DNA of 47,049 bases. Source: a virus. The position numbers and the translations under genes are program-made. A model generated the notes under the pieces. The model worked only from the letters and a program-made list of their open reading frames with translations, made no database searches and had not been told where the DNA came from. Position 1 is the stretch's first letter. The number at the start of each line of letters is the position of its first letter. The stretch lies in IMG/VR virus record IMGVR_UViG_3300009545_000009, positions 1 through 47,049 of that record; one strand, written 5' to 3'. Shown in pieces: positions 1-47,049 of this stretch.

Positions 1-274
1 CGAAGAGCGGTTCTATTCGATGGGCGACATCGAGTGGAATGACAGCAGCGATTTCTGGTGGACTGAAGGCAACTTCGGCTGCGACTGCAATAGGCATCTA
101 TCCTTCCTGCGCGCTGGTGGGCCGGGGCCGGCTGATGACCCGCATTGGAATAACGCTGACCGGGAGTGCGGGCAGACTGCCTACACAGTTCCATATGCAG
201 TGATGGAAGACGGCACGCGCATTGATCTCGACGGATCGGAACATCCGAGAACCGGATGTTCCACCAATGAGTGA
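1..274 (+). CDS. Hypothetical phage protein (3' part of a gene crossing the join)
   Basis: This is the continuation of the gene that starts at 46889. Because the window ends repeat, the full protein is 103 aa on the circular molecule. The first Met visible here (position 20) is internal. The protein is rich in Trp and acidic residues, with Cys residues in the middle, and I recognise no family. Its stop overlaps the next start in an ATGAGTGA octet, the same coupling seen along this rightward operon. Confidence 0.8.
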   Translation, partial: EERFYSMGDIEWNDSSDFWWTEGNFGCDCNRHLSFLRAGGPGPADDPHWNNADRECGQTAYTVPYAVMEDGTRIDLDGSEHPRTGCSTNE

Positions 275-8211: not shown

Positions 8212-10926
8212 TTATCGCCCTGCGGCCGTCGTGAGATCGGCCATCTGCGTGGGCGCGGAATCCCCCGGCTCCCACCAGTACGTAGTCCCCCAGTCGCGTC
8301 TCGCCGCAGCCTTCTGGCGTGCGAGATACCCCGGAGAAAGTGAGTCCTGCAGTTCGTTGAAGCCGGCATGGTCGATCGCGGCCTTGAGATACCAGAGGTT
8401 CATAAAGGGGACGTTCTGACGTGCGAAGCGCAGGAGCTCCGCCGCGGCCTTCGGGTCCTTGCCTTGCATCACCTGGCCGAGATTGCCGAGCGTGACGTTC
8501 GCAGCATCCGCCGCCGTTCCTGCTACAGGGCCCGCAAGGCTCGTCCAGTTCGGCTGGCCGCCGCGCGAGTTGCCTCCGAGCCCGGTGTAGAGCATGTCGC
8601 CAAAGATTCCGAGCCCGCCGCCCTGAGCGAATGCCGCGCCCCAGAACTTCGGCGTTGTGGCATCGCGCGGGTTTTTTCCGCTGATGAGGTCCTTGAGCTC
8701 AACCGACAGTGCGCCCATCAGCGTGAGGCCCGTCAACAGCGAGAGGCTGTAGGCAAGTCGGCCCTTGACGGTCGGAATCGACTTGATGCGCTCGATGTTC
8801 CGGATGACCATCGAAAGCGGAAACGACTTGAACAGCATCAGGCTGCGGCCAATCTCGCCGCCGAGCGTGCCCGCCTTCATGCCCTGCGTGATCGTCGCGC
8901 GCGTCACGACATCGGGTGCAAGAACTGCAGTCTTGCCCTCGTTATCGATGAAGCCGAGCATCTTTGCGACAGCCTGATTGACTTGGGCGTCCGTGAAGCT
9001 TCCGGACGCCCATGGTTTACGCTGATTGGCGAGGTCCGCCGGCAGCTCAACCCGCGATGGATAAGGGATGCCAGCAGCAAGATCGCCCGCGCCACGCGCG
9101 GCGTGATTGGCTGGCACGTCGACGTACCAGACTTTCATCCCAGAACCGCGGCTCGCCCAACCTTCCGCGTCGGGCAAGTGAGAGGTCACCCACAGCGGCC
9201 CAGTGACACCCTCAGGTGATCCGCCGTGGTAGTAGCGGACCATGCCAGCAGCCGGAGGCGCTACTCCTTTCGCGTTGCGAATTGCGTTCGCGGTCAGAAG
9301 ATCGCGGCCGCGAATGTTCTCGGGTGTTGCCGCCTGCCAGACCTGCCAGTCCCCGTCCGTAAGCCCCGCCGCCTTGAACCGTTCGCGATCGAAGTCCGAA
9401 AGCGCGCCCCAGTCAGTGTTTTTGAGCGTCGCGAGCTGATCCTGAAGCATGAGGCCGAGGCCAGCCCGGAGCCGATGCGTCCACGCCTCCACGAACTGCA
9501 GTTTCATGGTTGCGTTTGCGATCTTTCCAGACCAGTCCTGACGTAGATTGTCGGCATGCCAGGCCTGCATTTCGCCCGACACGCTCTCGACTGCAAGGCC
9601 CAGACGAGCAGCGTCTTCAGTGAGGCTGCTGGAGGCGAGACTCTTGAACATCTGCCCGAACGCCTTGCCGAGCGGCACACCGTTGTAGCGCGCGGTCGCA
9701 AGCCACGTCGGCGCATCGTTGATCGAGGAGATCATGACGCCGCCGAGCTTCGTGGCGGAGGTCCAGTTGCGGATCGTGCGGCCGATCGCTGCGGCTCGCG
9801 GGTTCACCGGGCTTGCGGTGGTACCGTTCAGCACGTCCCAGACCATGTCGGTGGTCGCGCCGTACTGTGTGACGCCCTTCGCCGGCCGTCCTGCCGCGCG
9901 CGAGTCCTCGATCTGCGCGGTGTCGTTCAGCAGTTTGTACGTCGAGGTTGGGTTTGAGCCGAACGACTCCATGAGGCCGATATTCTTGGCCTGCATGTTC
10001 ACGTGGTTGTGGATCGATTCGAATACCGAGCCCTGCCCGAAGTCGGCGAGGTAGCCGAGATAGCTATCCGGATCCTTGAAGTGCAGCGCGCGGTGAGCCT
10101 CATCGAAGCGCGAGGCACGAGAACCCGCACCGCCCGAGCCTGCTTCCCGGCGGGTGAGTCCTTCGGTTGCAAGCGTGTCGTACGAGTGACTCAGGAAGTC
10201 ATTCATCTGGGCATCGGTCATCGCCGAGCCATCGGGATTGAAGTAGCGCGAACGGTCGAGGCGCGGCAGGACCTTGCCTACCCACTCCGCTTTGCCCGCC
10301 TTCACGATGGCGCCCGTGTCGTGGGGCTGCGGCAGGTAGCCGTAATCGAGCTTGCCGATGTCCGCGCCGGCTGAGTTCAGGCGCTCACGGATGTGCTCTA
10401 CCTGCTCGAGATAGGCTTTCGCACCGTCTGCCGCGACCTTGTTGCCGGTCTTCTCCCCGTACACCTCGCGCACGAAATCACGCACGGCGGTGGGATTCTC
10501 GATGAGTCCCATGAACCGCGGTGCTGCAGCGTGCATGGCATCCATGAGGTTGCCGAACAGTTCATTTCGGACGCCGGTGACGTACTGGTCTACCTGGCGT
10601 AGGCGTTCGAACAGGGCCTTGTGGACCGCGTCCTTTCCGCCAAACTCTTTCGACCTGGCGATGAGGTTTGAAGTCTCGCGAGCCTGGGCGGAAGCGTTGA
10701 GCGCCTTTCGCTGCGCAGCCTTGGCGGCCTGCTCTGTGTCCTGCTTCAGCGAGAGTTCCGCGGCGGCCTTGAGGCGATCCGCGGCAGCCATGCCGGCGAA
10801 CGTCTTGTCCGTGCGCGCGAGCTCGCGCAGGTTCGCGGTGATGCGATCCTCCATGCGCTGGGCTTCGCCTTTCCCGAGAGCCCGGCCGATCGCCTGTTCG
10901 ATTTGCTGGATGCAGGCGGTTTTCAT
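8212..10926 (-). CDS. Internal virion protein with inserted ADP-ribosyltransferase-like domain
   Basis: A 904-aa protein in the position of the large ejected core protein of T7-like phages. A helical core occupies about 1-555 and 645-904. A foreign-looking block at about 562-641 (DNA 9004-9243) begins with VRYYHGG and continues LWVTSHLPDAEGWA and KVWYVDVP, resembling the first strands of His/Arg-type ADP-ribosyltransferases (polyvalent-protein style). After the block the core resumes at KMLGFIDNEGKTAVLAPD. A hydrophobic stretch lies at about 722-740. The start at 10926 gives an ATGA overlap. The core role is well supported by context; the enzyme domain is tentative. Confidence 0.75.
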   Translation of the reverse strand: MKTACIQQIEQAIGRALGKGEAQRMEDRITANLRELARTDKTFAGMAAADRLKAAAELSLKQDTEQAAKAAQRKALNASAQARETSNLIARSKEFGGKDAVHKALFERLRQVDQYVTGVRNELFGNLMDAMHAAAPRFMGLIENPTAVRDFVREVYGEKTGNKVAADGAKAYLEQVEHIRERLNSAGADIGKLDYGYLPQPHDTGAIVKAGKAEWVGKVLPRLDRSRYFNPDGSAMTDAQMNDFLSHSYDTLATEGLTRREAGSGGAGSRASRFDEAHRALHFKDPDSYLGYLADFGQGSVFESIHNHVNMQAKNIGLMESFGSNPTSTYKLLNDTAQIEDSRAAGRPAKGVTQYGATTDMVWDVLNGTTASPVNPRAAAIGRTIRNWTSATKLGGVMISSINDAPTWLATARYNGVPLGKAFGQMFKSLASSSLTEDAARLGLAVESVSGEMQAWHADNLRQDWSGKIANATMKLQFVEAWTHRLRAGLGLMLQDQLATLKNTDWGALSDFDRERFKAAGLTDGDWQVWQAATPENIRGRDLLTANAIRNAKGVAPPAAGMVRYYHGGSPEGVTGPLWVTSHLPDAEGWASRGSGMKVWYVDVPANHAARGAGDLAAGIPYPSRVELPADLANQRKPWASGSFTDAQVNQAVAKMLGFIDNEGKTAVLAPDVVTRATITQGMKAGTLGGEIGRSLMLFKSFPLSMVIRNIERIKSIPTVKGRLAYSLSLLTGLTLMGALSVELKDLISGKNPRDATTPKFWGAAFAQGGGLGIFGDMLYTGLGGNSRGGQPNWTSLAGPVAGTAADAANVTLGNLGQVMQGKDPKAAAELLRFARQNVPFMNLWYLKAAIDHAGFNELQDSLSPGYLARQKAAARRDWGTTYWWEPGDSAPTQMADLTTAAGR

Positions 10927-12986
10927 GCGCCTCGCCCCAGGAAGCATTGAACCGCGACCGAGTACGCTTCCGCGTCCTTCAGGTCTTGCTGGTACTCACG
11001 CTGGATCTGGTCCGCAACGTCGGCTAGCGTCGACTGGATGGGCTGGCCATCCGCATCGAAGCCGGAATAGATGGGTGCGTCGGGACGCTCGCTGGCGAGC
11101 CGCTGGAGAGCGGTGAGTTCGGGGACCTTCCCAGACTCGGCGGAGACTAGTGGCTCAGCGCCCGCTGGTTGAGCTTGTCGAGCATCCGCTGCGCTCGCGC
11201 GTCCGCCGCCAGATCGTTGGGAGTCTTCGCGGAATCCGCGGTAGACGGCGTCGGAGATGCGGCCGGCTTGGTGTTCTGCGTCGAGGGCTGTGCTTGCTTC
11301 TTCACGAAGCCGAGTATACGCGCTCTCGTCGAGCTTCGGAATACGCGCCAGGGTAGACATGCGCGCGTTGCCCTTGCCGTGCGTATTGTCAAATACGCGG
11401 ATCTTCACGCGATCATCGCCTGCGTAATGGGCTGCCAGGCGATCCATGGTCTCGCGCGCACCGACATGGGTTGCGACGTGTTCGCTGAGCGGTACCGTTC
11501 GTCCCGAGCCGCTACGAGCCTCCTGCCGCATCGCGCGAGGCAATGCGCCTCCCGTGAGGGCTTCGATTGGGTCGCGGTAGGTGTAGACGATCTCGACGCG
11601 CTTCCCGGCCTGTAGTGCCTGATCGATCTTCTGAGTAGCACTCTCCAGGCGATTCATGTTCGTGTCGTAGACGATTTGCGCGCCCGTGATGTCCAGGCCG
11701 CTACTCTTGCCGGCGCCGGTACCTCCGGCGCTGAATAACACCAATGGCTCTTCACCGGGCCCGGGGCGCTGGGCAAGCTTCTTCGCGTATAGCTGCTTGA
11801 TGAACGCCGAAGCAGGCTCGTGAACCTGCGCGGAAAGAGATCGATCAGCCTGGTACTCGGGCGAGAGTTCGCGGGCGATATCAGTGTTCAGAACCTTGCC
11901 GCCCTCAGACTCGGGCAACTCGCTGTAGCGCCTCTCGGCTGCGATTGGATGCGCGGCGAGCTCCGCCTCAAAGCGCTGCGCGAGCGGCGGGCCGCTTTCG
12001 TATGGCACATCTTCCGGCTGCACCGCCTCAACATCCCGCGCAAGCTTCGCGGACTCGTTAAGCTTCCCCGTGTCTTCGAAAGACGCCGGCTGCTCCGTGA
12101 CGGCCCGGCTCACATCGACCGGCTCATTGCGCGAGAGCTGCTCGAGCGCCGTCTGCAGGGCGTCCTGATGCGCTACTTCAGATGCAATGTCTGCGGGCTT
12201 CCCTGGCGCGGTCTCGGTCGTGAAGCTCTTCGTGTTGCGCGCGGCCATCACCGCATCGACCTGCGAGGGTGCGAGGCGCGGATCGATGTGGGGTGACAGC
12301 GTGTGATGCAGGCCACCGAACAGAAGGCCGGTCAGCGCATCCGTCGTGACCGAGGCAAGGTCCAGCACAGGAGGTGCCTGGTCCTCGTAGCCGGTCGCCT
12401 TAAATAGGGCCCCTTCCGCGCCACGCGTTGCCGCGCCGAATGCAAGATTGCCCGCCGCGCCGCTCGCAAGCCGACTCGTCAGGGTCTGGCCGACCACAGG
12501 GATCTTGAACCCGAGACCTGTTGCGAGAGCCTCGGTTGTGCCAGCTGCCACCGCGACGGGAGCGCTCACGCCCTCATTCACCAGGTCCTTGCCGCGCTCG
12601 ATGGCCTGTGTGCCCATGAGCACCGACGGATTGCCGCCCATGGCGGCGAGCGGGAGCAGGATCTCACCGAAGCTCCCGAGGGTCTGGCCGACCTTCCCCA
12701 CTTCGTGCGGGGCTGGCGTCCAATAGTCGATCGAGTCCTTGCGGACCTCGTCGGCGAATGAGTCGAGCGCTTCCTTGTCCGTGCCTGGTTCATCGAAGAA
12801 CGAGCCGACGGTCTGCATGAAGTCAGCCGTCTTGGCGCCACCGCGCATAATGCCGGTACCGATGCCCTTGAACGTGCCGCGGAAAGCCGGGGCGTCCAAC
12901 TCATCGAGGCTGTTGATGCTGTTCGCACGCGCGGCCGCTTCGAGCGGAGCCGACGCTTGCGCGTCAAATGAGAACAGGTCGCTCAT
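10923..12986 (-). CDS. Internal virion protein with embedded Zeta-toxin-type kinase domain
   Basis: A 687-aa protein. Residues 1-330 look like a structural ejection protein with Gly/Ala-rich, partly membrane-active stretches. Residues about 355-590 (DNA 11217-11924) form a Zeta-like P-loop kinase: Walker A GGTGAGKS (421-428), YDTNMNR, VEIVYTYRDP and an Arg-rich lid region. Zeta toxins phosphorylate UDP-sugars or other small substrates and stop cell-wall growth. No Epsilon antitoxin gene is adjacent. Placement between two internal virion genes suggests packaging and ejection with the DNA. The C-terminal 90 residues are helical. Confidence 0.82.
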   Translation of the reverse strand: MSDLFSFDAQASAPLEAAARANSINSLDELDAPAFRGTFKGIGTGIMRGGAKTADFMQTVGSFFDEPGTDKEALDSFADEVRKDSIDYWTPAPHEVGKVGQTLGSFGEILLPLAAMGGNPSVLMGTQAIERGKDLVNEGVSAPVAVAAGTTEALATGLGFKIPVVGQTLTSRLASGAAGNLAFGAATRGAEGALFKATGYEDQAPPVLDLASVTTDALTGLLFGGLHHTLSPHIDPRLAPSQVDAVMAARNTKSFTTETAPGKPADIASEVAHQDALQTALEQLSRNEPVDVSRAVTEQPASFEDTGKLNESAKLARDVEAVQPEDVPYESGPPLAQRFEAELAAHPIAAERRYSELPESEGGKVLNTDIARELSPEYQADRSLSAQVHEPASAFIKQLYAKKLAQRPGPGEEPLVLFSAGGTGAGKSSGLDITGAQIVYDTNMNRLESATQKIDQALQAGKRVEIVYTYRDPIEALTGGALPRAMRQEARSGSGRTVPLSEHVATHVGARETMDRLAAHYAGDDRVKIRVFDNTHGKGNARMSTLARIPKLDESAYTRLREEASTALDAEHQAGRISDAVYRGFREDSQRSGGGRASAADARQAQPAGAEPLVSAESGKVPELTALQRLASERPDAPIYSGFDADGQPIQSTLADVADQIQREYQQDLKDAEAYSVAVQCFLGRGA

Positions 12987-15031
12987 TGCACGGTAATCAC
13001 GAGCGGCTCGCCCTTCAGCGAGAACACATCGCGACCCTTGGTGACGAGATACTGGTTCGCCTTCCAGTTGCGCAGTCCCAGGCTGCCGAACGAGTCGACG
13101 GCCTTGGCCGCATCGGCATCGGGCACGCCGCGCGCCTTCAGTTCGGCTGCAAAGGCGGGGCGCGCTTTGTCTGCGAACGTCGACTCATCCATGCCGAGCG
13201 GCGCAAGCACATCCCCGTAGCCATGGAATGGCACGACAGTGCCGATGGATGCCTTCAGCGCCTGCTGAACGAGCCGCTGGTCGATGTCCTGCGTATCCGC
13301 GTTGAGCCGCCCCGTCTCGGCGGACTTGCCCACGTAGTAGGCATAGGCCACCTGCAGCGCGAGAGACTGCGCATCAGGACGTCCGGCGAACGCATCGCCG
13401 ACCTTGTCGACGAATGCCGTATCGAACTGGCTCTTGTTCGGCAGGAAGAGATTGGAGACGGGCTTACCGTCCTCGCCCTTCACCTGCTTCGTCTTGTTGA
13501 GCAGGTTCTCGCCCGTGACGATCGTCTGCGCGACCACACGGGCCGAAATCGCCGGATCATTCGCGCGGAACCAGTGGCCCGCCTCGGGAATCACATCGAC
13601 CGGCTTGCCATAGATCTGGCCCGCGTAGGCCTTGACCGGTGAGTCCGGCGCGATCTGCTGCATCATCGCCGCGTAAGCTTCATCGCTACTCACGGAAGCG
13701 CGCAGCTTCCCGAACAACTGCACGGCAGCCTGGGGATTCGCCGCATTGACCTGCGAGGCGAGCGCCTGCGCTTCCTGAGGCAGTAGCGGCTTCATCAGAA
13801 CCTGATTGCCGTACTGCTTGCGCATGGCAGTGATCGTGTCAACACGGCTCTGCAATGCCTGCTGCTGGGTGGGATCATCGAGCGCCGAGAGATCGACCTC
13901 GGGAATACTGGTTCCGGTGCGGGTCGCGTTGAACTGCAGCGGCTGCTGCTGGAGCAAGGTGACGTTCTGTGTCACGGCCGTCTTCAGCCGGTTCAGGTTC
14001 ACCGCATCGCGCATCGTGCCGCCGCCCTGATCAAGCGCGGCCTGCCGCTCCTGCACGGCCTTCACCTGATCGGTGATGGGCATGCGCAGGAGCTTCTGCA
14101 CATCCTGCTCGTCCGCCACCCGCTCTTTGAAGTCCCCCGCGAAGGTCGTCCCGCGCGTCTTGTTCTCCCAGCCTGCCCACATCTCAGGGGTCGCAGGAAC
14201 TCCGCTTGCAATCTGTCGGTCGATCTCGTTCAGCGTGCGCTCGGCGATGGCGTCGCGGTGATCCATCAAGGCGCGCGCGCGGTTCTCGGCTATGCGCTTG
14301 GCATCCGTGATCGCATTCTCGATCTGCGACGCCTTGTCGCCGTTTACATGATCGCGAATGGTGTTGTAGTAGCTCTCGGCTCCCGCGATGTTGTCGTTCG
14401 ACAGGAAGCGTCCGACGACTGCCGCATACGTGGCGGACTGTCGCGTCCCGATCTCCGCAGCCTTTTGTTCTCCGTCGAGCCCAGGAGACTGATCTACTGC
14501 GGCCCGCATCCGGGCCATCTCCGCCTCAACCGCCTTCGGATCATCGAAGTACGTCACCGCATTGACGTGGGCCTGCGCCTTGTAGTCCTCGCGCGATTTG
14601 GCGTAGTACGCCTCGGTCTGCTGCCGTTCGTGCGTGTCGAGTTGTCGCTGCAACTGCGCGCGCTTCTCGTTCACAGAAGACTGGTAGACGGCCTTCTGCC
14701 GGTCGCTCTTGAGGCCCTGCGTGATCTCGCTCGTCTTCTTGTCGAAGGTGGAGATGGCTTCAGGTGCAACCCCAATTGCGTCCTTCATGACCTTCGATTG
14801 CGCCTGCGAGTAGAGATCGTTGGCAACCGTATCGGTGTTGCGGTCGGCCTCCATGAAGGCCGCGCGATCGGCCTTGAGCTGCTCTTCCTTCCTGATCTTG
14901 AAGGCGACAGCGCCCACATCCGACACGCCCGCGCCGAGATCCTGGCCCACGGTGTTCTGCAATGGGCGCTGCTGAAAGTTCGGCGCTGCCTGCGCGCTCA
15001 CCTGATTCTGGAGTGTGGGAACAACCGGCAT
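12983..15031 (-). CDS. Internal virion (core/ejection) protein
   Basis: A 682-aa, long, largely helical protein with many Gln/Ala/Lys residues, in the place of T7 gp15-like core proteins. It starts at MPVVPTLQNQV, which gives an ATGA overlap with the gp14-like gene; the longer ORF upstream is read-through of that gene's frame. It probably forms part of the channel used to deliver DNA. No catalytic motif is visible. Confidence 0.78.
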   Translation of the reverse strand: MPVVPTLQNQVSAQAAPNFQQRPLQNTVGQDLGAGVSDVGAVAFKIRKEEQLKADRAAFMEADRNTDTVANDLYSQAQSKVMKDAIGVAPEAISTFDKKTSEITQGLKSDRQKAVYQSSVNEKRAQLQRQLDTHERQQTEAYYAKSREDYKAQAHVNAVTYFDDPKAVEAEMARMRAAVDQSPGLDGEQKAAEIGTRQSATYAAVVGRFLSNDNIAGAESYYNTIRDHVNGDKASQIENAITDAKRIAENRARALMDHRDAIAERTLNEIDRQIASGVPATPEMWAGWENKTRGTTFAGDFKERVADEQDVQKLLRMPITDQVKAVQERQAALDQGGGTMRDAVNLNRLKTAVTQNVTLLQQQPLQFNATRTGTSIPEVDLSALDDPTQQQALQSRVDTITAMRKQYGNQVLMKPLLPQEAQALASQVNAANPQAAVQLFGKLRASVSSDEAYAAMMQQIAPDSPVKAYAGQIYGKPVDVIPEAGHWFRANDPAISARVVAQTIVTGENLLNKTKQVKGEDGKPVSNLFLPNKSQFDTAFVDKVGDAFAGRPDAQSLALQVAYAYYVGKSAETGRLNADTQDIDQRLVQQALKASIGTVVPFHGYGDVLAPLGMDESTFADKARPAFAAELKARGVPDADAAKAVDSFGSLGLRNWKANQYLVTKGRDVFSLKGEPLVITVQ

Positions 15032-15481: not shown

Positions 15482-15907
15482 TCAGCGACTCACCTGTCTG
15501 AACAGTTCGCCACGCGTGCCGTACGCAACCGGCTCGCCGAGCGTGAAGCCGAGCCACGCGAACCACTTCACCGCAGCCTCGTTCCGTACGTCCACATAGT
15601 TCACGACCGACACCGTGAGGCTTTCGGCCCAGCGTTTCGCGGCACGCAGGAACGGCAACGGATGGCGATCGATGGCCTGGGAGAAGACCGCCCACGGCAC
15701 ATTGCAGTCCTCGTGATGCATCACGCCAAAGATCCCAGCCGCCTCGCCGTCGATGAACACTGTCTGCGCGTTGCCGTACACGAGCCCGTAGCGCAGACAC
15801 ATCTCTGAGGTAACGCCCAGCGCCTCAAGCTCATCGATCTCTGGCTGGCGCAGATTGGAGAGCACGAGCCATGAATCACCAGGCATGGAGGGACGGATCT
15901 CAACCAT
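15482..15907 (-). CDS. GNAT-like virion-associated protein (T7 gp13-like)
   Basis: A 141-aa protein. The sequence follows the N-acetyltransferase-like fold found in the phage gp13 family: IRPSMPGDSWLV at the start, AQTVFIDGEAAGIFGVM in the centre, then VVNYVDVRNEAAVKWFAWLGF near the end, a typical GNAT acceptor and cofactor-end signature. In T7 the equivalent protein helps assemble the core. The start at 15907 gives an ATGGTTGA overlap with the nozzle gene. Enzyme activity is unknown. Confidence 0.75.
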   Translation of the reverse strand: MVEIRPSMPGDSWLVLSNLRQPEIDELEALGVTSEMCLRYGLVYGNAQTVFIDGEAAGIFGVMHHEDCNVPWAVFSQAIDRHPLPFLRAAKRWAESLTVSVVNYVDVRNEAAVKWFAWLGFTLGEPVAYGTRGELFRQVSR

Positions 15908-18611
15908 TGCGGCCAACCTCCACAACTGGCGAGCAACTCAGGATCGTCATTGGCAATGGCTGATCCTGCCGCGCCAGCACGCGCCCGCTCTTGTTCCAGC
16001 TCGTGAGCATGTAAGCCGGGTCGTTCACTTCGTTCTGCAGCGGCCACGGCGCGTTGTAGTCGAAGCTCGCAGGCTGCAGCCCGTAGTCATGCAGGTTGTC
16101 CTCGTCGGGCCCCGCCTTCATGCCAAGCGTCTTCTCCACGACAAATGAAACCTTCGGAATGACCTTGGCGTTGTCGCGGATACTCTCGGTCGCTCCGAAG
16201 ATCGTCACGTCGAGCGTCTCGATGTCGGATACATACGGCAGGCCGATATGCACGACGCCTGCGGGATATGGGAGTCTCACCGCACCGTTCACCACAACTT
16301 GCGGGACCTCGGGTGACCCATCGGCGAGGATCGCGACTGTTTCGCCTTCGAGGTGGCTGAGGCCGGAGAACGTGTCGCGCGCCAGAGTCCAGGTTGTCGT
16401 CGCGATACCCTGCAGGGCCGCCGGAACCGGAGATTGCAGGACGGCCGTTGCTGTCATGACGCCGCCGACTGCCGTAATCACGGCGCGCACGTTGCCATCG
16501 GCGTGAGGGAGCTGGATCGCATCACCTACCTCATCTCCGGTGAAGAGGACGAAGGATGCTGTGAGTGTCACGGTGTCGCCACCCGCGTACGTTCCCGTGA
16601 TCGTGAGCGTCGTGGAACTGGTGTTGCGTCCGTCGTAACTGAGCCCGCAGTCGACAAAGAACGAGTCGAGGATGTCGTCCTGATCGCGCTCTGCCATGCG
16701 CTCGAGGTAGCGTACCGCCGCGCCGTTCACCGTCCGCCGCACGACGAAGTACGGCACATCACGGCCGTCTTCCGGGATCACGCACACGCGCTCGAAGAAG
16801 CCCCGTGTGTCGTGCCGGTGCCAGCCGATCACGTCCTGTTCCTTCAGGTAGGTGAGCCCGATCAAAGCGCCATCGCTGCGGACGATCCACAGGATGCCGT
16901 GCGGTTCCTTGGCGTAGTCCATGTCGACTATGGTGTGATTGCGGTCGAACAGGTGCCGCGACATGACGGTCAGCTCATCGCCGCGGAACTTGTCACCTCC
17001 TTGGGTGAAGGCAAGGTCCCTGACCTTGGTGGCGCCGTTCGTTGCGAAGAGCAGCGACTCGCCGGTCTGGATCGCGCGCAGGAACATTGCGCCGTCGAAA
17101 GACTGGGGGTCGTAGCCGACCGTCTGCGGTGTCCAGGCAAGGCCACGGGATGGGGAGGCCCACGAGGAACTCGATGTCAGCGAGATGAGCTGGTCCATCG
17201 GGACGAGCTCAAGAATTGCGTTGATCTGTCGCGCGTTCAGGCGCTGCGTGATCGCATCATCTGCGACCAGCGGGGAGGACACGCCGAAGTTGTGATAGTC
17301 GGCGGTCTTGCTTGCCCACTCGGTTTGCGGCTGCTCGGGTGTGTTCGCGAAGACGAGCCGGTCCTGGTAGTAGGTCACGATCGCGGGATAGCCCTGGTCG
17401 ATGCTCCACGCGCCAAAGGCCCATATCGTGGTCGTCGCGGGATTCACCACAGGCATGTAGTCGAGCACCGTGGCGGTGGCCGTCGTGCCCGCCTGCGCGG
17501 TGATCTGGGCCGTACCGAATAGCGAGTGCAGGTACTGCCATGTCACACCGGCCCGTGTGTTGGCGACGCCATTCAGCAGGTTGCCATCGCCATCCGCTTC
17601 GATACCGTCATCGTGAAAGGGGGCGACAGTCCCAGTGTAGGTGCCAGCCGATGGCGCCGCTGCATTGCCCGCCGCGACGTACACCTTGCCGTTGGAACGC
17701 CGGAGCAGCCCATCAGGATCGACGCCGCTTGCCGCGATGAGCTTGTTCGGCTCCCATGGCGGGATGGCCGAGAGATCCTCCATACTCAGGCGAATGAGCG
17801 AGCCGATGTGGGCGGCCGTGAAGATGCTGGTGGAGGCCGTAAGCGTGACAGAGCCGGTTGCGGCGGATGCCTTGAGCGTCGTCGATGAGACATTGTCGTC
17901 AAGGAACGGCCCGCCCTCGAAATCCGTGATCGGCAGCAGCGTGAAGGTCGATGCCCCAGTCCGTACGAACTCGTACGGGATGTAGTTCTGGTTGCAGATC
18001 GTGAGCACGTCCGCGCTCTGGGTGTAGCGCAGGTCGGAAAGCTCCGCCGAGAGGTAGGGAGAGGCGATCGCAAGCGACGTGGAAGCAGACCCCCCGCTGG
18101 TATACGCGCCGCTTGGATCGCCGCTGCCTGCCACCCTGAAAGTGTTGGCCGTGGGGACCGTGAGGATGAGCCAGCTGCCGTTGACCTGGAACGTGCCGCT
18201 TGCCACCACTCCGACGATAGTGACGGTCTGCCCCGCGATAAATCCATGGGGCGCAACCGTGGTGATCTCACGCCGCGGCAGCCCACCAATGAGTCCGTCC
18301 GTGACGTTGGTGATCGCGATGCCGCCGTTCTGCACGAAGGCGCCATTGGTGAACACCTGCACAGTGCCCTGCTGGAAGGCCAGCATGTAGGACTGCGTCG
18401 TGCTGAAGACGAACGGCACCAGCGCCGCAAGGCTTGACGGGCTCAGCGCATAGACGAACTCGAGCCCTGCGCGGTTGCTGGCGCCGCCGGTTGCCCGAAT
18501 GAAGCAGTTCTTGCAGGTGCGTAGCGCGAGCGCGAACTTCTGCAGGTCCGTGCGCGCGTACAGACTTGGCGATATTTCTCCTGCACTGAAGGATGTCTGC
18601 GATATCTTCAC
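15900..18611 (-). CDS. Tail nozzle protein (tail tubular protein B-like)
   Basis: A 903-aa protein from a GTG start. The N-terminus (FSAGEISPSLYARTDL, CKNCFIRATGGASNRAG) is characteristic of the podovirus nozzle or stabilisation protein that follows tail tube A. The rest is beta-rich with repeated TVTLTAS-type strands and an inserted Ig-like look. It should form the distal tail tube. Its size agrees with this family. Confidence 0.85.
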   Translation of the reverse strand: MKISQTSFSAGEISPSLYARTDLQKFALALRTCKNCFIRATGGASNRAGLEFVYALSPSSLAALVPFVFSTTQSYMLAFQQGTVQVFTNGAFVQNGGIAITNVTDGLIGGLPRREITTVAPHGFIAGQTVTIVGVVASGTFQVNGSWLILTVPTANTFRVAGSGDPSGAYTSGGSASTSLAIASPYLSAELSDLRYTQSADVLTICNQNYIPYEFVRTGASTFTLLPITDFEGGPFLDDNVSSTTLKASAATGSVTLTASTSIFTAAHIGSLIRLSMEDLSAIPPWEPNKLIAASGVDPDGLLRRSNGKVYVAAGNAAAPSAGTYTGTVAPFHDDGIEADGDGNLLNGVANTRAGVTWQYLHSLFGTAQITAQAGTTATATVLDYMPVVNPATTTIWAFGAWSIDQGYPAIVTYYQDRLVFANTPEQPQTEWASKTADYHNFGVSSPLVADDAITQRLNARQINAILELVPMDQLISLTSSSSWASPSRGLAWTPQTVGYDPQSFDGAMFLRAIQTGESLLFATNGATKVRDLAFTQGGDKFRGDELTVMSRHLFDRNHTIVDMDYAKEPHGILWIVRSDGALIGLTYLKEQDVIGWHRHDTRGFFERVCVIPEDGRDVPYFVVRRTVNGAAVRYLERMAERDQDDILDSFFVDCGLSYDGRNTSSTTLTITGTYAGGDTVTLTASFVLFTGDEVGDAIQLPHADGNVRAVITAVGGVMTATAVLQSPVPAALQGIATTTWTLARDTFSGLSHLEGETVAILADGSPEVPQVVVNGAVRLPYPAGVVHIGLPYVSDIETLDVTIFGATESIRDNAKVIPKVSFVVEKTLGMKAGPDEDNLHDYGLQPASFDYNAPWPLQNEVNDPAYMLTSWNKSGRVLARQDQPLPMTILSCSPVVEVGRNG

Positions 18612-35565: not shown

Positions 35566-36313
35566 TGCCGTTCCTGAGTTTCTCGCGCGCACGCTCCACT
35601 GCCGACGCCTGGGGCTTCGGTGGAGCTCGGGCGAAGTTGAGGCCGCGTTCGATGTGGGTGACATCGCGCAGGAAAAGCTCGATGTCGTCGTAGACAGTTC
35701 GCTGGTCGTTCTCGCCCATGTGGTGCGGCGAGAGCTTGTAGCCGGAGATCGCGGAGCAGACCGTTGCCTCGTCGAACGAAGCCAGCGCGGCTGCGATCAC
35801 CTTCCGGCGTTTTGCGTCGAGCTTCGCTTTCGGGTGCCCGAACTCTCGGCGCCAGTGTTCAAAAATCCTTCCAGCCGGTTCGTCGTCGAGTTTCAACTCG
35901 ACAGAGATCTTCTCTCCTCTGTCTCTACTCTTCTCTCCTCTACTCTCCTCTCCTCTGGCATAGCATCCTGCTAGCAACGTGCTAGCAGCTTGCACCGAGG
36001 CGGTTTCGTCGCTGGTGACTTCTTGAATTTCAAGGAAGTTGTACGAGACCAGATGCAGGAGAGCGGCACGGAACGCACTTTCAGTGCATTCGAGGCTGGC
36101 AACCTTTTTCAGCAGGTCCCAGCGGTATGGGATTTGGTTGTTGTAGCGCGCTGCTAGCAACATGCTAGCAACCTGCACCAGACGACTCGTGTCGGTTCCG
36201 AGGACCCAGGACTCGCTTGTGAGCAGCTCGCGATACAGCTTCACCCACGGGGGCGAACGGTCCTTGTAGTGCTGGAGCTCGGCCCAGCCGCAAAGTTTGA
36301 TAATCGCGGCCAT
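35474..36313 (-). CDS. Replication initiation protein (origin-binding, O-like)
   Basis: A 279-aa protein. The N-terminus IIKLCGWAELQHYKDRSPPWVKLYRELLTS is the signature of phage replisome organiser proteins with a winged-helix origin-binding domain. The middle contains the repeated segments VQVASMLLA and VQAASTLLA, which the candidate iteron DNA encodes. A charged Arg/Glu/Lys-rich linker (ARGEESRGEKSRDRGEK) follows. The start at 36313 overlaps the upstream stop as TAATG. Confidence 0.82.
   Translation of the reverse strand: MAAIIKLCGWAELQHYKDRSPPWVKLYRELLTSESWVLGTDTSRLVQVASMLLAARYNNQIPYRWDLLKKVASLECTESAFRAALLHLVSYNFLEIQEVTSDETASVQAASTLLAGCYARGEESRGEKSRDRGEKISVELKLDDEPAGRIFEHWRREFGHPKAKLDAKRRKVIAAALASFDEATVCSAISGYKLSPHHMGENDQRTVYDDIELFLRDVTHIERGLNFARAPPKPQASAVERAREKLRNGNGNRVVSEQFGPASESGLGAATGLLRRIPD
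35908..36170. other. Candidate replication origin inside the replication gene
   Basis: The palindrome TGCTAGCA occurs four times in two pairs: 35969/35980 and 36152/36163, each pair 11 bp apart (one helical turn) and the pairs 183 bp apart. The flanking bases are also conserved between pairs (TGCACC follows each). A 49-nt nearly pure pyrimidine tract (35908-35956) lies beside the first pair. The layout, iterons inside the initiator gene next to a biased tract, resembles the lambda ori in gene O. Confidence 0.6.
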
Positions 36314-46892: not shown

Positions 46893-47049
46893 AATACAAG
46901 GTCCTGATCCGCGACAACGCGACCGGCGAAGAGCGGTTCTATTCGATGGGCGACATCGAGTGGAATGACAGCAGCGATTTCTGGTGGACTGAAGGCAACT
47001 TCGGCTGCGACTGCAATAGGCATCTATCCTTCCTGCGCGCTGGTGGGCC
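46889..47049 (+). CDS. Hypothetical protein, 5' part (continues at position 1)
   Basis: Starts MKYKVLIRDNATGEERF and reads past the end of the window; the reading frame matches the ORF at 1-274 exactly. The full product is 103 aa. The ATGA overlap with the upstream gene supports the start. The first Met in the other copy (position 20) is internal. Confidence 0.8.
   Translation, partial: MKYKVLIRDNATGEERFYSMGDIEWNDSSDFWWTEGNFGCDCNRHLSFLRAGG
46927..47049. repeat. Terminal repeat of 123 bp (copy of 1-123)
   Basis: The last 123 bases equal the first 123. A single gene and the rightward operon read through the join. This is the usual mark of a circular or circularly permuted phage genome assembled as a linear contig, giving a unit length of 46,926 bp. 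Confidence 0.95.

What the first reader, a model, noticed from the sequence alone, without database searches (positions are those of the whole stretch)
11217..11924. Zeta-toxin-type kinase built into an internal virion protein
The 687-aa product at 10923-12986 lies in the ejected-core set and carries a P-loop domain with GGTGAGKS, YDTNMNR and VEIVYTYRDP, the pattern of Zeta toxins, with no Epsilon antitoxin nearby. A kinase delivered with the DNA at the first minute of infection could block host cell-wall precursors or other metabolites. Polyvalent phage proteins that carry toxin domains are described in general; a Zeta domain in a podoviral core protein next to a second effector-like domain deserves attention.
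Basis: partly seen in the sequence, partly recalled or inferred. Interest (0 to 1): 0.82.

Follow-up and report, generated by a model that had tools for sequence, protein, structure and literature searches.

The report
Zeta kinase inside phage ejection protein
A temperate phage carries, inside one of the proteins it is expected to eject into the bacterium with its DNA, an intact-looking toxin-type kinase of a rare rearranged kind that in its only studied relative blocks cell-wall building blocks, and related phages swap this piece in and out of the same spot.

Summary
The 687-aa protein is an epsilon15-type gp16 (ejection/core protein family) with a Zeta-type P-loop kinase at aa 353-590. It is not a canonical Zeta: its catalytic-Asp block precedes the P-loop, the 'rewired' order of gonococcal ng_zeta1 (profile E 9e-16; model pLDDT 92; Z 26.4, 2.2 A over 242 residues, against about 12 for canonical Zeta). 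Catalytic residues are conserved in 59 relatives; dN/dS is about 0.26.

New here: the kinase sits in a cargo slot between the conserved gp16 N-part and C-tail. Twenty-five other contigs carry it there; it comes and goes at least 11 times on the gp17 tree; one close relative has a canonical-order Zeta in the same slot. Of 50,697 phage records only one, uncultured, has it. Prior art: Zeta kinases fused to phage MuF proteins (Iyer 2017).

Delivery and phosphorylation of host UDP-sugars are inferred. Neither substrate nor virion presence could be tested, and AvrRxo1 shows this fold can act on NAD instead. The phage has an integrase, so 'lethal at minute one' is doubtful. The gp17 insert is real, its enzyme identity unproven. 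Verdict: new variant of a known kind.

The parts
10923..12986 (-). gp16-type ejection/core protein with built-in Zeta kinase, 687 aa
   Evidence: ORF and translation; phrog_1145 E 8e-36 over aa 3-324; PF06414 E 4e-12
12015..12986 (-). conserved gp16 N-part (aa 1-324): helical, Gly/Ala-rich, moderately hydrophobic segments
   Evidence: phrog_1145; alignment A2; helical model of moderate confidence; hydropathy
11217..11930 (-). Zeta-type kinase domain of rewired (ng_zeta1-like) order, aa 353-590
   Evidence: A1 profile to 6eph E 9e-16; model pLDDT 92.1, pTM 0.88; Z 26.4, rmsd 2.2 A over 242 residues to 6eph
11775..11894 (-). swapped block with catalytic Asp369 and the TD..R / VHEP motif, lying before the P-loop (aa 365-404)
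   Evidence: matches PF06414 positions 48-92; D369 aligns with Asp56 of ng_zeta1
11703..11726 (-). P-loop GGTGAGKS (aa 421-428), Lys427
   Evidence: G-G-x-G-x-G-K invariant in 59 aligned domains; aligns with Lys115 of ng_zeta1
11388..11684 (-). rest of kinase core: YDTNM (D441, N443), R484, GRTVPxxxH (R496, H503) up to aa 533; N534 follows
   Evidence: PF06414 positions 95-186; D441, R484, R496, H503 and N534 invariant, N443 nearly so
10926..11150 (-). conserved gp16 C-tail (aa 613-687) ending AVQCFLGRGA
   Evidence: shared with epsilon15, phiV10, YeP5 and MPK9 gp16 proteins that lack Zeta
12983..15031 (-). gp15-type core protein (likely start at the ATG at 15031; mechanical ORF to 15133)
   Evidence: phrog_992 E 1e-48; other profile matches begin at residue 35 of the mechanical ORF
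8212..10926 (-). gp17-type virion structural protein (likely start at M8 of the 911-aa ORF)
   Evidence: phrog_684 E 1e-218, match begins at residue 8
9001..9264 (-). about 88-aa insert in gp17 (aa 562-649) with an ART-like motif, absent from the other gp17 proteins aligned
   Evidence: alignment with relatives; weak similarity to large Xanthomonas phage proteins, E 0.01; no Pfam match

Best explanation
The protein is an epsilon15-type gp16 ejection protein whose variable mid-section has been filled by a catalytically competent Zeta-type kinase of the rewired (ng_zeta1-like) subclass. Most likely it is packed in the head with gp15 and gp17 and threads into the cell ahead of or with the DNA, with its N-part in the envelope and the kinase, on flexible linkers, reaching the cytoplasm. 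There it uses ATP and Asp369 to phosphorylate a UDP-activated sugar (UDP-GlcNAc/UDP-MurNAc class), diverting cell-envelope precursors in a dose-limited, transient way rather than killing outright. Shown here: fold, block order, intact catalytic residues, purifying selection, gp16 membership, slot exchange. Inferred from relatives: virion location, ejection, cytoplasmic position, substrate, effect.
For: Fold and order: profile to ng_zeta1 E 9e-16 over the whole kinase domain in the same linear order; Pfam fragments in swapped order 48-92 / 12-32 / 95-186; model pLDDT 92, Z 26.4 to ng_zeta1 with UNAM bound, 12.3 to AvrRxo1, 10.7-12.0 to canonical Zeta. Published ng_zeta1 has Asp56 before P-loop Lys115, rewired topology and UDP-sugar 4'-kinase activity. 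Competence: P-loop, D441, R484, R496, H503, N534 invariant and D369, R372, H389 at least 90% in 59 domains; dN/dS about 0.26 against L018, like gp16N. Carrier: gp16 family and synteny; the epsilon15 literature places gp15 and gp17/16 in the DNA injection device; in T7 the gp16 C-part is modelled in the cytoplasm, 4-6 copies. Module: sharp domain with linkers below pLDDT 50 at aa 320-331 and 589-618; clean presence/absence between sister proteins L024/L065 and L136; 13 changes on the gp17 tree, at least 11 forced by starred branches; a canonical-order Zeta in the same slot of L115, nested between rewired carriers, which argues that Zeta-type activity itself is what is kept.
Against: No direct evidence of the protein in virions or of activity. 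Substrate residues are only partly those of ng_zeta1: Lys59 is Arg372, Asn75 aligns with Ser385, and the E-G strand end is D-T-N. The same fold in AvrRxo1 phosphorylates NAD, not UNAG. The phage has an integrase, so strong cell-wall poisoning on entry would harm lysogeny. With ng_zeta1 kinetics (kcat 200/s, KM 0.23 mM, UNAM 30-60 uM) about 6 copies would convert roughly 200 UNAM per second, an estimate that suggests a dent and not a block.
Confidence: 0.55

Rival explanations
1. The kinase is delivered but acts on another nucleotide-type metabolite (for example NAD, as AvrRxo1 does, or a defence signal), so it serves counter-defence or metabolic takeover and not cell-wall blockade.
For: AvrRxo1 has the same fold family (Z 12.3) yet phosphorylates NAD at 3' and not UNAG. 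UNAM-contact residues are only partly kept, and the E-G motif is replaced by D-T-N. The same slot in relatives holds ART-PolyVal and ddrB-ParB domains, typical of polyvalent proteins.
Against: The closest structure by far is the UDP-sugar 4'-kinase ng_zeta1 (Z 26.4 against 12.3), and a canonical Zeta occupies the same slot in L115.
Confidence: 0.25
2. The kinase works in the producing cell: made late in bulk, it weakens the wall and helps lysis, and its presence in virions is incidental.
For: It lies in the late virion gene block, with gp15 and gp17 apparently overlapping by ATGA and no Epsilon antitoxin; gp16 copies made per cell would far exceed the few delivered. Expression of ng_zeta1 in E. 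coli is lytic.
Against: Gain, loss and swapping happen inside an ejection protein, where a free-standing gene would do for lysis. Early lysis before assembly would be costly.
Confidence: 0.15
3. The domain is a structural filler or a dead remnant that only adds bulk to the core.
For: Slot length varies widely, and most relatives without Zeta have only 52-310 aa there.
Against: Invariant P-loop and catalytic residues in 59 diverged domains; every rewired Zeta in gp16 keeps its P-loop; dN/dS 0.26; free-standing versions in other phages and bacteria.
Confidence: 0.05

Closest known systems
ng_zeta1 toxin of Neisseria gonorrhoeae (PDB 6EPG/6EPH/6EPI; Rocker 2018, PMC5923241)
   Same: Same rewired block order (catalytic Asp before the P-loop), same fold (Z 26.4, 2.2 A over 242 residues), catalytic Asp and Lys aligned.
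   Different: ng_zeta1 is a free toxin with its own antitoxin and a C-terminal OB domain. Here the kinase is a module inside a phage ejection protein, without a recognised antitoxin; Lys59 and Asn75 counterparts are Arg and (by sequence alignment) Ser.
Canonical Zeta/PezT toxins (PF06414; 1GVN, 3Q8X, 2P5T)
   Same: P-loop kinase fold, Asp base, GRxVPxxxH region.
   Different: Linear order of two sequence blocks swapped; Z only 10.7-12.0. L115, a close relative of this phage, carries the canonical order in the same slot.
Polyvalent proteins of phages and plasmids (Iyer 2017, PMC5512222)
   Same: Enzymatic effector domains fused to virion-type proteins; Zeta-like kinases fused to MuF proteins were already reported; relatives of this protein also carry ART-PolyVal and ddrB-ParB.
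   Different: Here the carrier is the epsilon15-type gp16 ejection protein with a defined slot, and the kinase is of the rewired subclass; neither is described in the passages I read.
MuF polymorphic toxins of temperate phages (Jamet 2017, PMC5576092)
   Same: Constant virion-type part plus variable toxin part in temperate phages.
   Different: Most MuF proteins are siphoviral and the toxin is the C-terminal part; here the cargo is internal, followed by a conserved C-tail, in an epsilon15-like phage.
epsilon15 / phiV10 gp16 (Uetakevirus)
   Same: N-part, C-tail and gene order gp15-gp16-gp17.
   Different: phiV10 gp16 (614 aa) has no match to the kinase profile; of 50,697 phage records only the uncultured genome MW202577 has this domain.

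Membership tests
Zeta toxin family (PF06414) | significant match to the family profile | tested here: met
   E 4.2e-12, 46.3 bits against cut-off 22.3, though in swapped block order
Zeta toxin family (PF06414) | P-loop (Walker A) and catalytic Asp | tested here: met
   GGTGAGKS at aa 421-428; D369 aligned with Asp56 of ng_zeta1
Zeta toxin family (PF06414) | Zeta kinase fold | tested here: met
   Model pLDDT 92.1; Z 26.4 ng_zeta1, 10.7-12.0 canonical Zeta
Zeta toxin family (PF06414) | UDP-sugar kinase activity | not testable with these tools
   needs an enzyme assay
Rewired ng_zeta1 subclass | block with catalytic Asp N-terminal to the P-loop | tested here: met
   published order
Rewired ng_zeta1 subclass | UNAM-binding residues Lys59, Asn75, Arg175, Arg181 | tested here: inconclusive
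   Lys59 is Arg372, Asn75 aligns with Ser385; invariant R484 and R496 are possible counterparts of the arginines
Epsilon/Zeta toxin-antitoxin system | cognate antitoxin encoded nearby | tested here: not met
   no PF08998 match in the whole phage genome; neighbours appear to overlap by ATGA; an antitoxin of an unknown family elsewhere cannot be excluded
epsilon15-type gp16 ejection protein | gp16 N-part, C-tail and gp15-gp16-gp17 order | tested here: met
epsilon15-type gp16 ejection protein | present in virions and ejected | not testable with these tools
   inferred from epsilon15 and T7 literature in PMC12391199 and PMC8954989
Phage polyvalent protein | effector-type enzyme fused to a virion-type protein in the late gene block | tested here: met
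   window protein carries one enzyme domain; relatives carry Zeta with ART-PolyVal and/or ddrB-ParB

The most novel reading that the evidence does not exclude
Epsilon15-like phages use the ejection protein gp16 as an exchangeable delivery vehicle: a fixed membrane-passing N-part and C-tail flank a slot into which enzymes, chiefly Zeta kinases of two different chain orders, are swapped, so that each lineage injects its own metabolite-modifying enzyme with its DNA, possibly on a substrate not yet known for Zeta kinases.
Probability: 0.4. Interest if true: 0.78.

Novelty: new variant of a known kind. Interest (0 to 1): 0.62.

Why it matters
If the kinase is delivered, this is a natural protein-injection slot in a podovirus-type ejection protein, with evolution showing which cargo is tolerated, and it would extend Zeta kinases from addiction modules to entry-time effectors. 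The presence of a rewired Zeta and a canonical one in the same slot of close relatives is a rare natural experiment indicating that the activity, not the sequence, is selected. It also makes a concrete question testable: which host metabolite does a phage phosphorylate at entry?

Tried and rejected
Chance P-loop: rejected. Canonical Zeta: rejected by the block order. Toxin-antitoxin pair: no PF08998 and apparent ATGA gene overlaps. Dead remnant: rejected. Spread on plasmids: no match among 72,556 records. ART identity of the gp17 insert: no Pfam match for the fragment or its relatives, and the viral-contig scan found no relative, so it is left as 'ART-like motif only'. A gp16N profile scan of viral contigs failed for lack of conserved stretches and was replaced by gp17. 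The candidate antitoxin beside acidobacterial copies matches no PDB chain. No paper was found that joins 'zeta toxin' with 'ejection protein'; 'polyvalent proteins' with 'zeta' gave Iyer 2017 and one irrelevant hit. Caveat on frequency: Zeta carriers were partly fetched by Zeta queries, so only the gp17-selected set (6 with Zeta, one of them canonical, of 75) says anything about frequency, and even that set was ranked by likeness to the window's group.

Full report
WHAT IS THERE. The window is a 47,049-base virus record with a 123-bp direct repeat at its ends, so probably a complete genome. It has an integrase (1228-2400 +), a terminase, a head-tail connector protein, a major head protein and a late block on the minus strand. 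In that block lie, in order, a tail protein of phrog_376 (15900-18611), gp15-type (12983-15031), gp16-type (10923-12986) and gp17-type (8212-10926) proteins. This is the gene order of epsilon15 and phiV10.

THE DOMAIN. Pfam Zeta_toxin matches aa 435-533 at E 4.2e-12, but only to positions 95-186 of 199. The reason appears when the whole frame is searched: positions 48-92 match aa 365-404, 12-32 match aa 410-430 and 95-186 match aa 435-533. The block with the catalytic Asp therefore stands before the P-loop. This is the order of ng_zeta1, whose authors describe two sequence blocks shuffled within the chain and two loops topologically rewired, with Asp56 before Lys115 (PMC5923241). Here the pair is D369 and K427. 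A profile of 13 phage domains finds ng_zeta1 and nothing else of note in the PDB (E 8.8e-16, its aa 25-269). The AlphaFold model (59 sequences) has pLDDT 92.1 and pTM 0.88 and matches ng_zeta1 with Z 26.4, 2.2 A over 242 residues; AvrRxo1 follows at 12.3, canonical Zeta at 10.7-12.0 and polynucleotide kinase at 9.4. In the 59 domains the P-loop, D441, R484, R496, H503 and N534 are invariant and D369, R372, H389 and N443 at least 90% conserved. Against the nearest relative L018 dN/dS is 0.26 for the domain, 0.27 for gp16N and 0.11 for gp17, with dS between about 1.1 and 1.5.

THE CARRIER AND ITS SLOT. The first ~324 aa belong to phrog_1145 and the last ~75 aa to a tail ending in a Cys-containing motif, shared with phiV10, YeP5, MPK9 and epsilon15 gp16 proteins without a kinase. 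Between them lies a slot of 52 to over 1,100 aa. In the full-length model the kinase is sharp (mostly pLDDT over 90) and flanked by linkers under 50 at 320-331 and 589-618. Besides the window, 25 contigs have gp16N plus the rewired Zeta, several also with ddrB-ParB or ART-PolyVal. Relatives without Zeta hold ddrB-ParB, ART-PolyVal or a transglycosylase. Sister proteins L024 and L065 and L136 (without) show clean presence/absence. On a gp17 tree of 95 rows the rewired Zeta needs 13 changes, at least 11 forced by well-supported branches. L115, whose gp17 groups with window and L018 inside L019 (99* and 100*), carries in the slot a canonical-order Zeta (PF06414 E 1e-40, positions 8-187). Aligned with the window, its P-loop lies before, not after, the matching D..Y..VHE block. 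Two differently ordered Zeta kinases in one slot of close relatives argue that Zeta-type activity is selected there. The direction of the swap is not determined.

DISTRIBUTION. 257 stretches in viral contigs encode a relative of the domain. It also occurs as free-standing proteins of about 300 aa upstream of terminase and portal genes in other phages, in proteins of 2,000-4,000 aa, and in 17 bacterial or archaeal assemblies, mostly Pseudomonadota and Acidobacteria. Among 50,697 phage records only the uncultured MW202577 matches, and no plasmid does. UniProt-derived models of uncultured phages already bear the name 'Zeta toxin domain containing protein'.

HOW IT MOST LIKELY WORKS. Shown: kinase fold, block order, intact catalytic residues, constraint, gp16 membership, slot exchange. 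Inferred: packaging and ejection, from epsilon15 and T7; cytoplasmic position of the C-terminal half, from T7 gp16; UDP-sugar substrate, from ng_zeta1. Against certainty on substrate: Lys59 and Asn75 of ng_zeta1 align with Arg and Ser, and AvrRxo1 proves that the fold can serve NAD. On dose: with ng_zeta1 constants and UNAM at about 50 uM each enzyme would turn over about 36 per second (calculated), so about 6 ejected copies would convert some 200 per second, that is a cell pool in a few minutes; wall synthesis draws, to my knowledge, several hundred to a thousand precursors per second. That is a dent, which fits a phage with an integrase better than a kill. Late action in the producing cell, where gp16 is abundant and no Epsilon antitoxin was found, remains a rival.

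THE SECOND DOMAIN. gp17 has an insert of about 88 aa (aa 562-649) absent from all other gp17 proteins aligned, including L018. Its YYHGG ... WVTS ... WA series resembles ADP-ribosyltransferase motifs and large Xanthomonas phage proteins (E 0.01), but no profile supports it.

PRIOR WORK. Iyer 2017 reported Zeta-like kinases in conjugative polyvalent proteins and fused to MuF in phages and proposed cell-wall weakening. What I did not find described is the rewired subclass in phages, the epsilon15-type gp16 as carrier, and the slot exchange; the library searched is open-access only.

Noticed in passing
window 10926-10990 (C-tail of gp16) and gp16 proteins of L002-L192, L196: epsilon15-type gp16 proteins end in a conserved [AV][AV]xC[FA]L signature with a near-invariant Cys (80 of 88 complete ORFs by pattern; epsilon15 gp16 ends VAAACFLRNP). 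Its role is unknown.
   Followed up: partly
window 9001-9264 (-): 88-aa insert in the gp17-type protein, found in no other aligned gp17, with an ART-like motif but no profile support.
   Followed up: partly
L109-L114, just after the kinase gene (for example L112 8626-8817): Acidobacterial copies of the free-standing rewired kinase are followed in 6 of 6 loci by an overlapping, conserved, basic ORF of about 60 aa, a candidate antitoxin unlike any PDB chain.
   Followed up: partly
L044 7647-8720, L071 7836-8804, L042 5742-6749: Free-standing rewired Zeta kinases of about 300-360 aa in another phage group lie upstream of terminase and portal genes; where the preceding gene was checked (L044, L071) it is a phrog_858 regulator-like gene.
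   Followed up: partly
L115 4809-7022: A close relative carries a canonical-order Zeta kinase in the same gp16 slot: an exchange between topological variants.
   Followed up: yes
window 1-123 and 46927-47049: Exact 123-bp direct repeat at both ends, so the record is probably a complete genome.
   Followed up: no
window 35961-35996 and 36144-36179: Short direct repeats rich in CTAGCAAC (83% identical), possibly operator-like sites.
   Followed up: no
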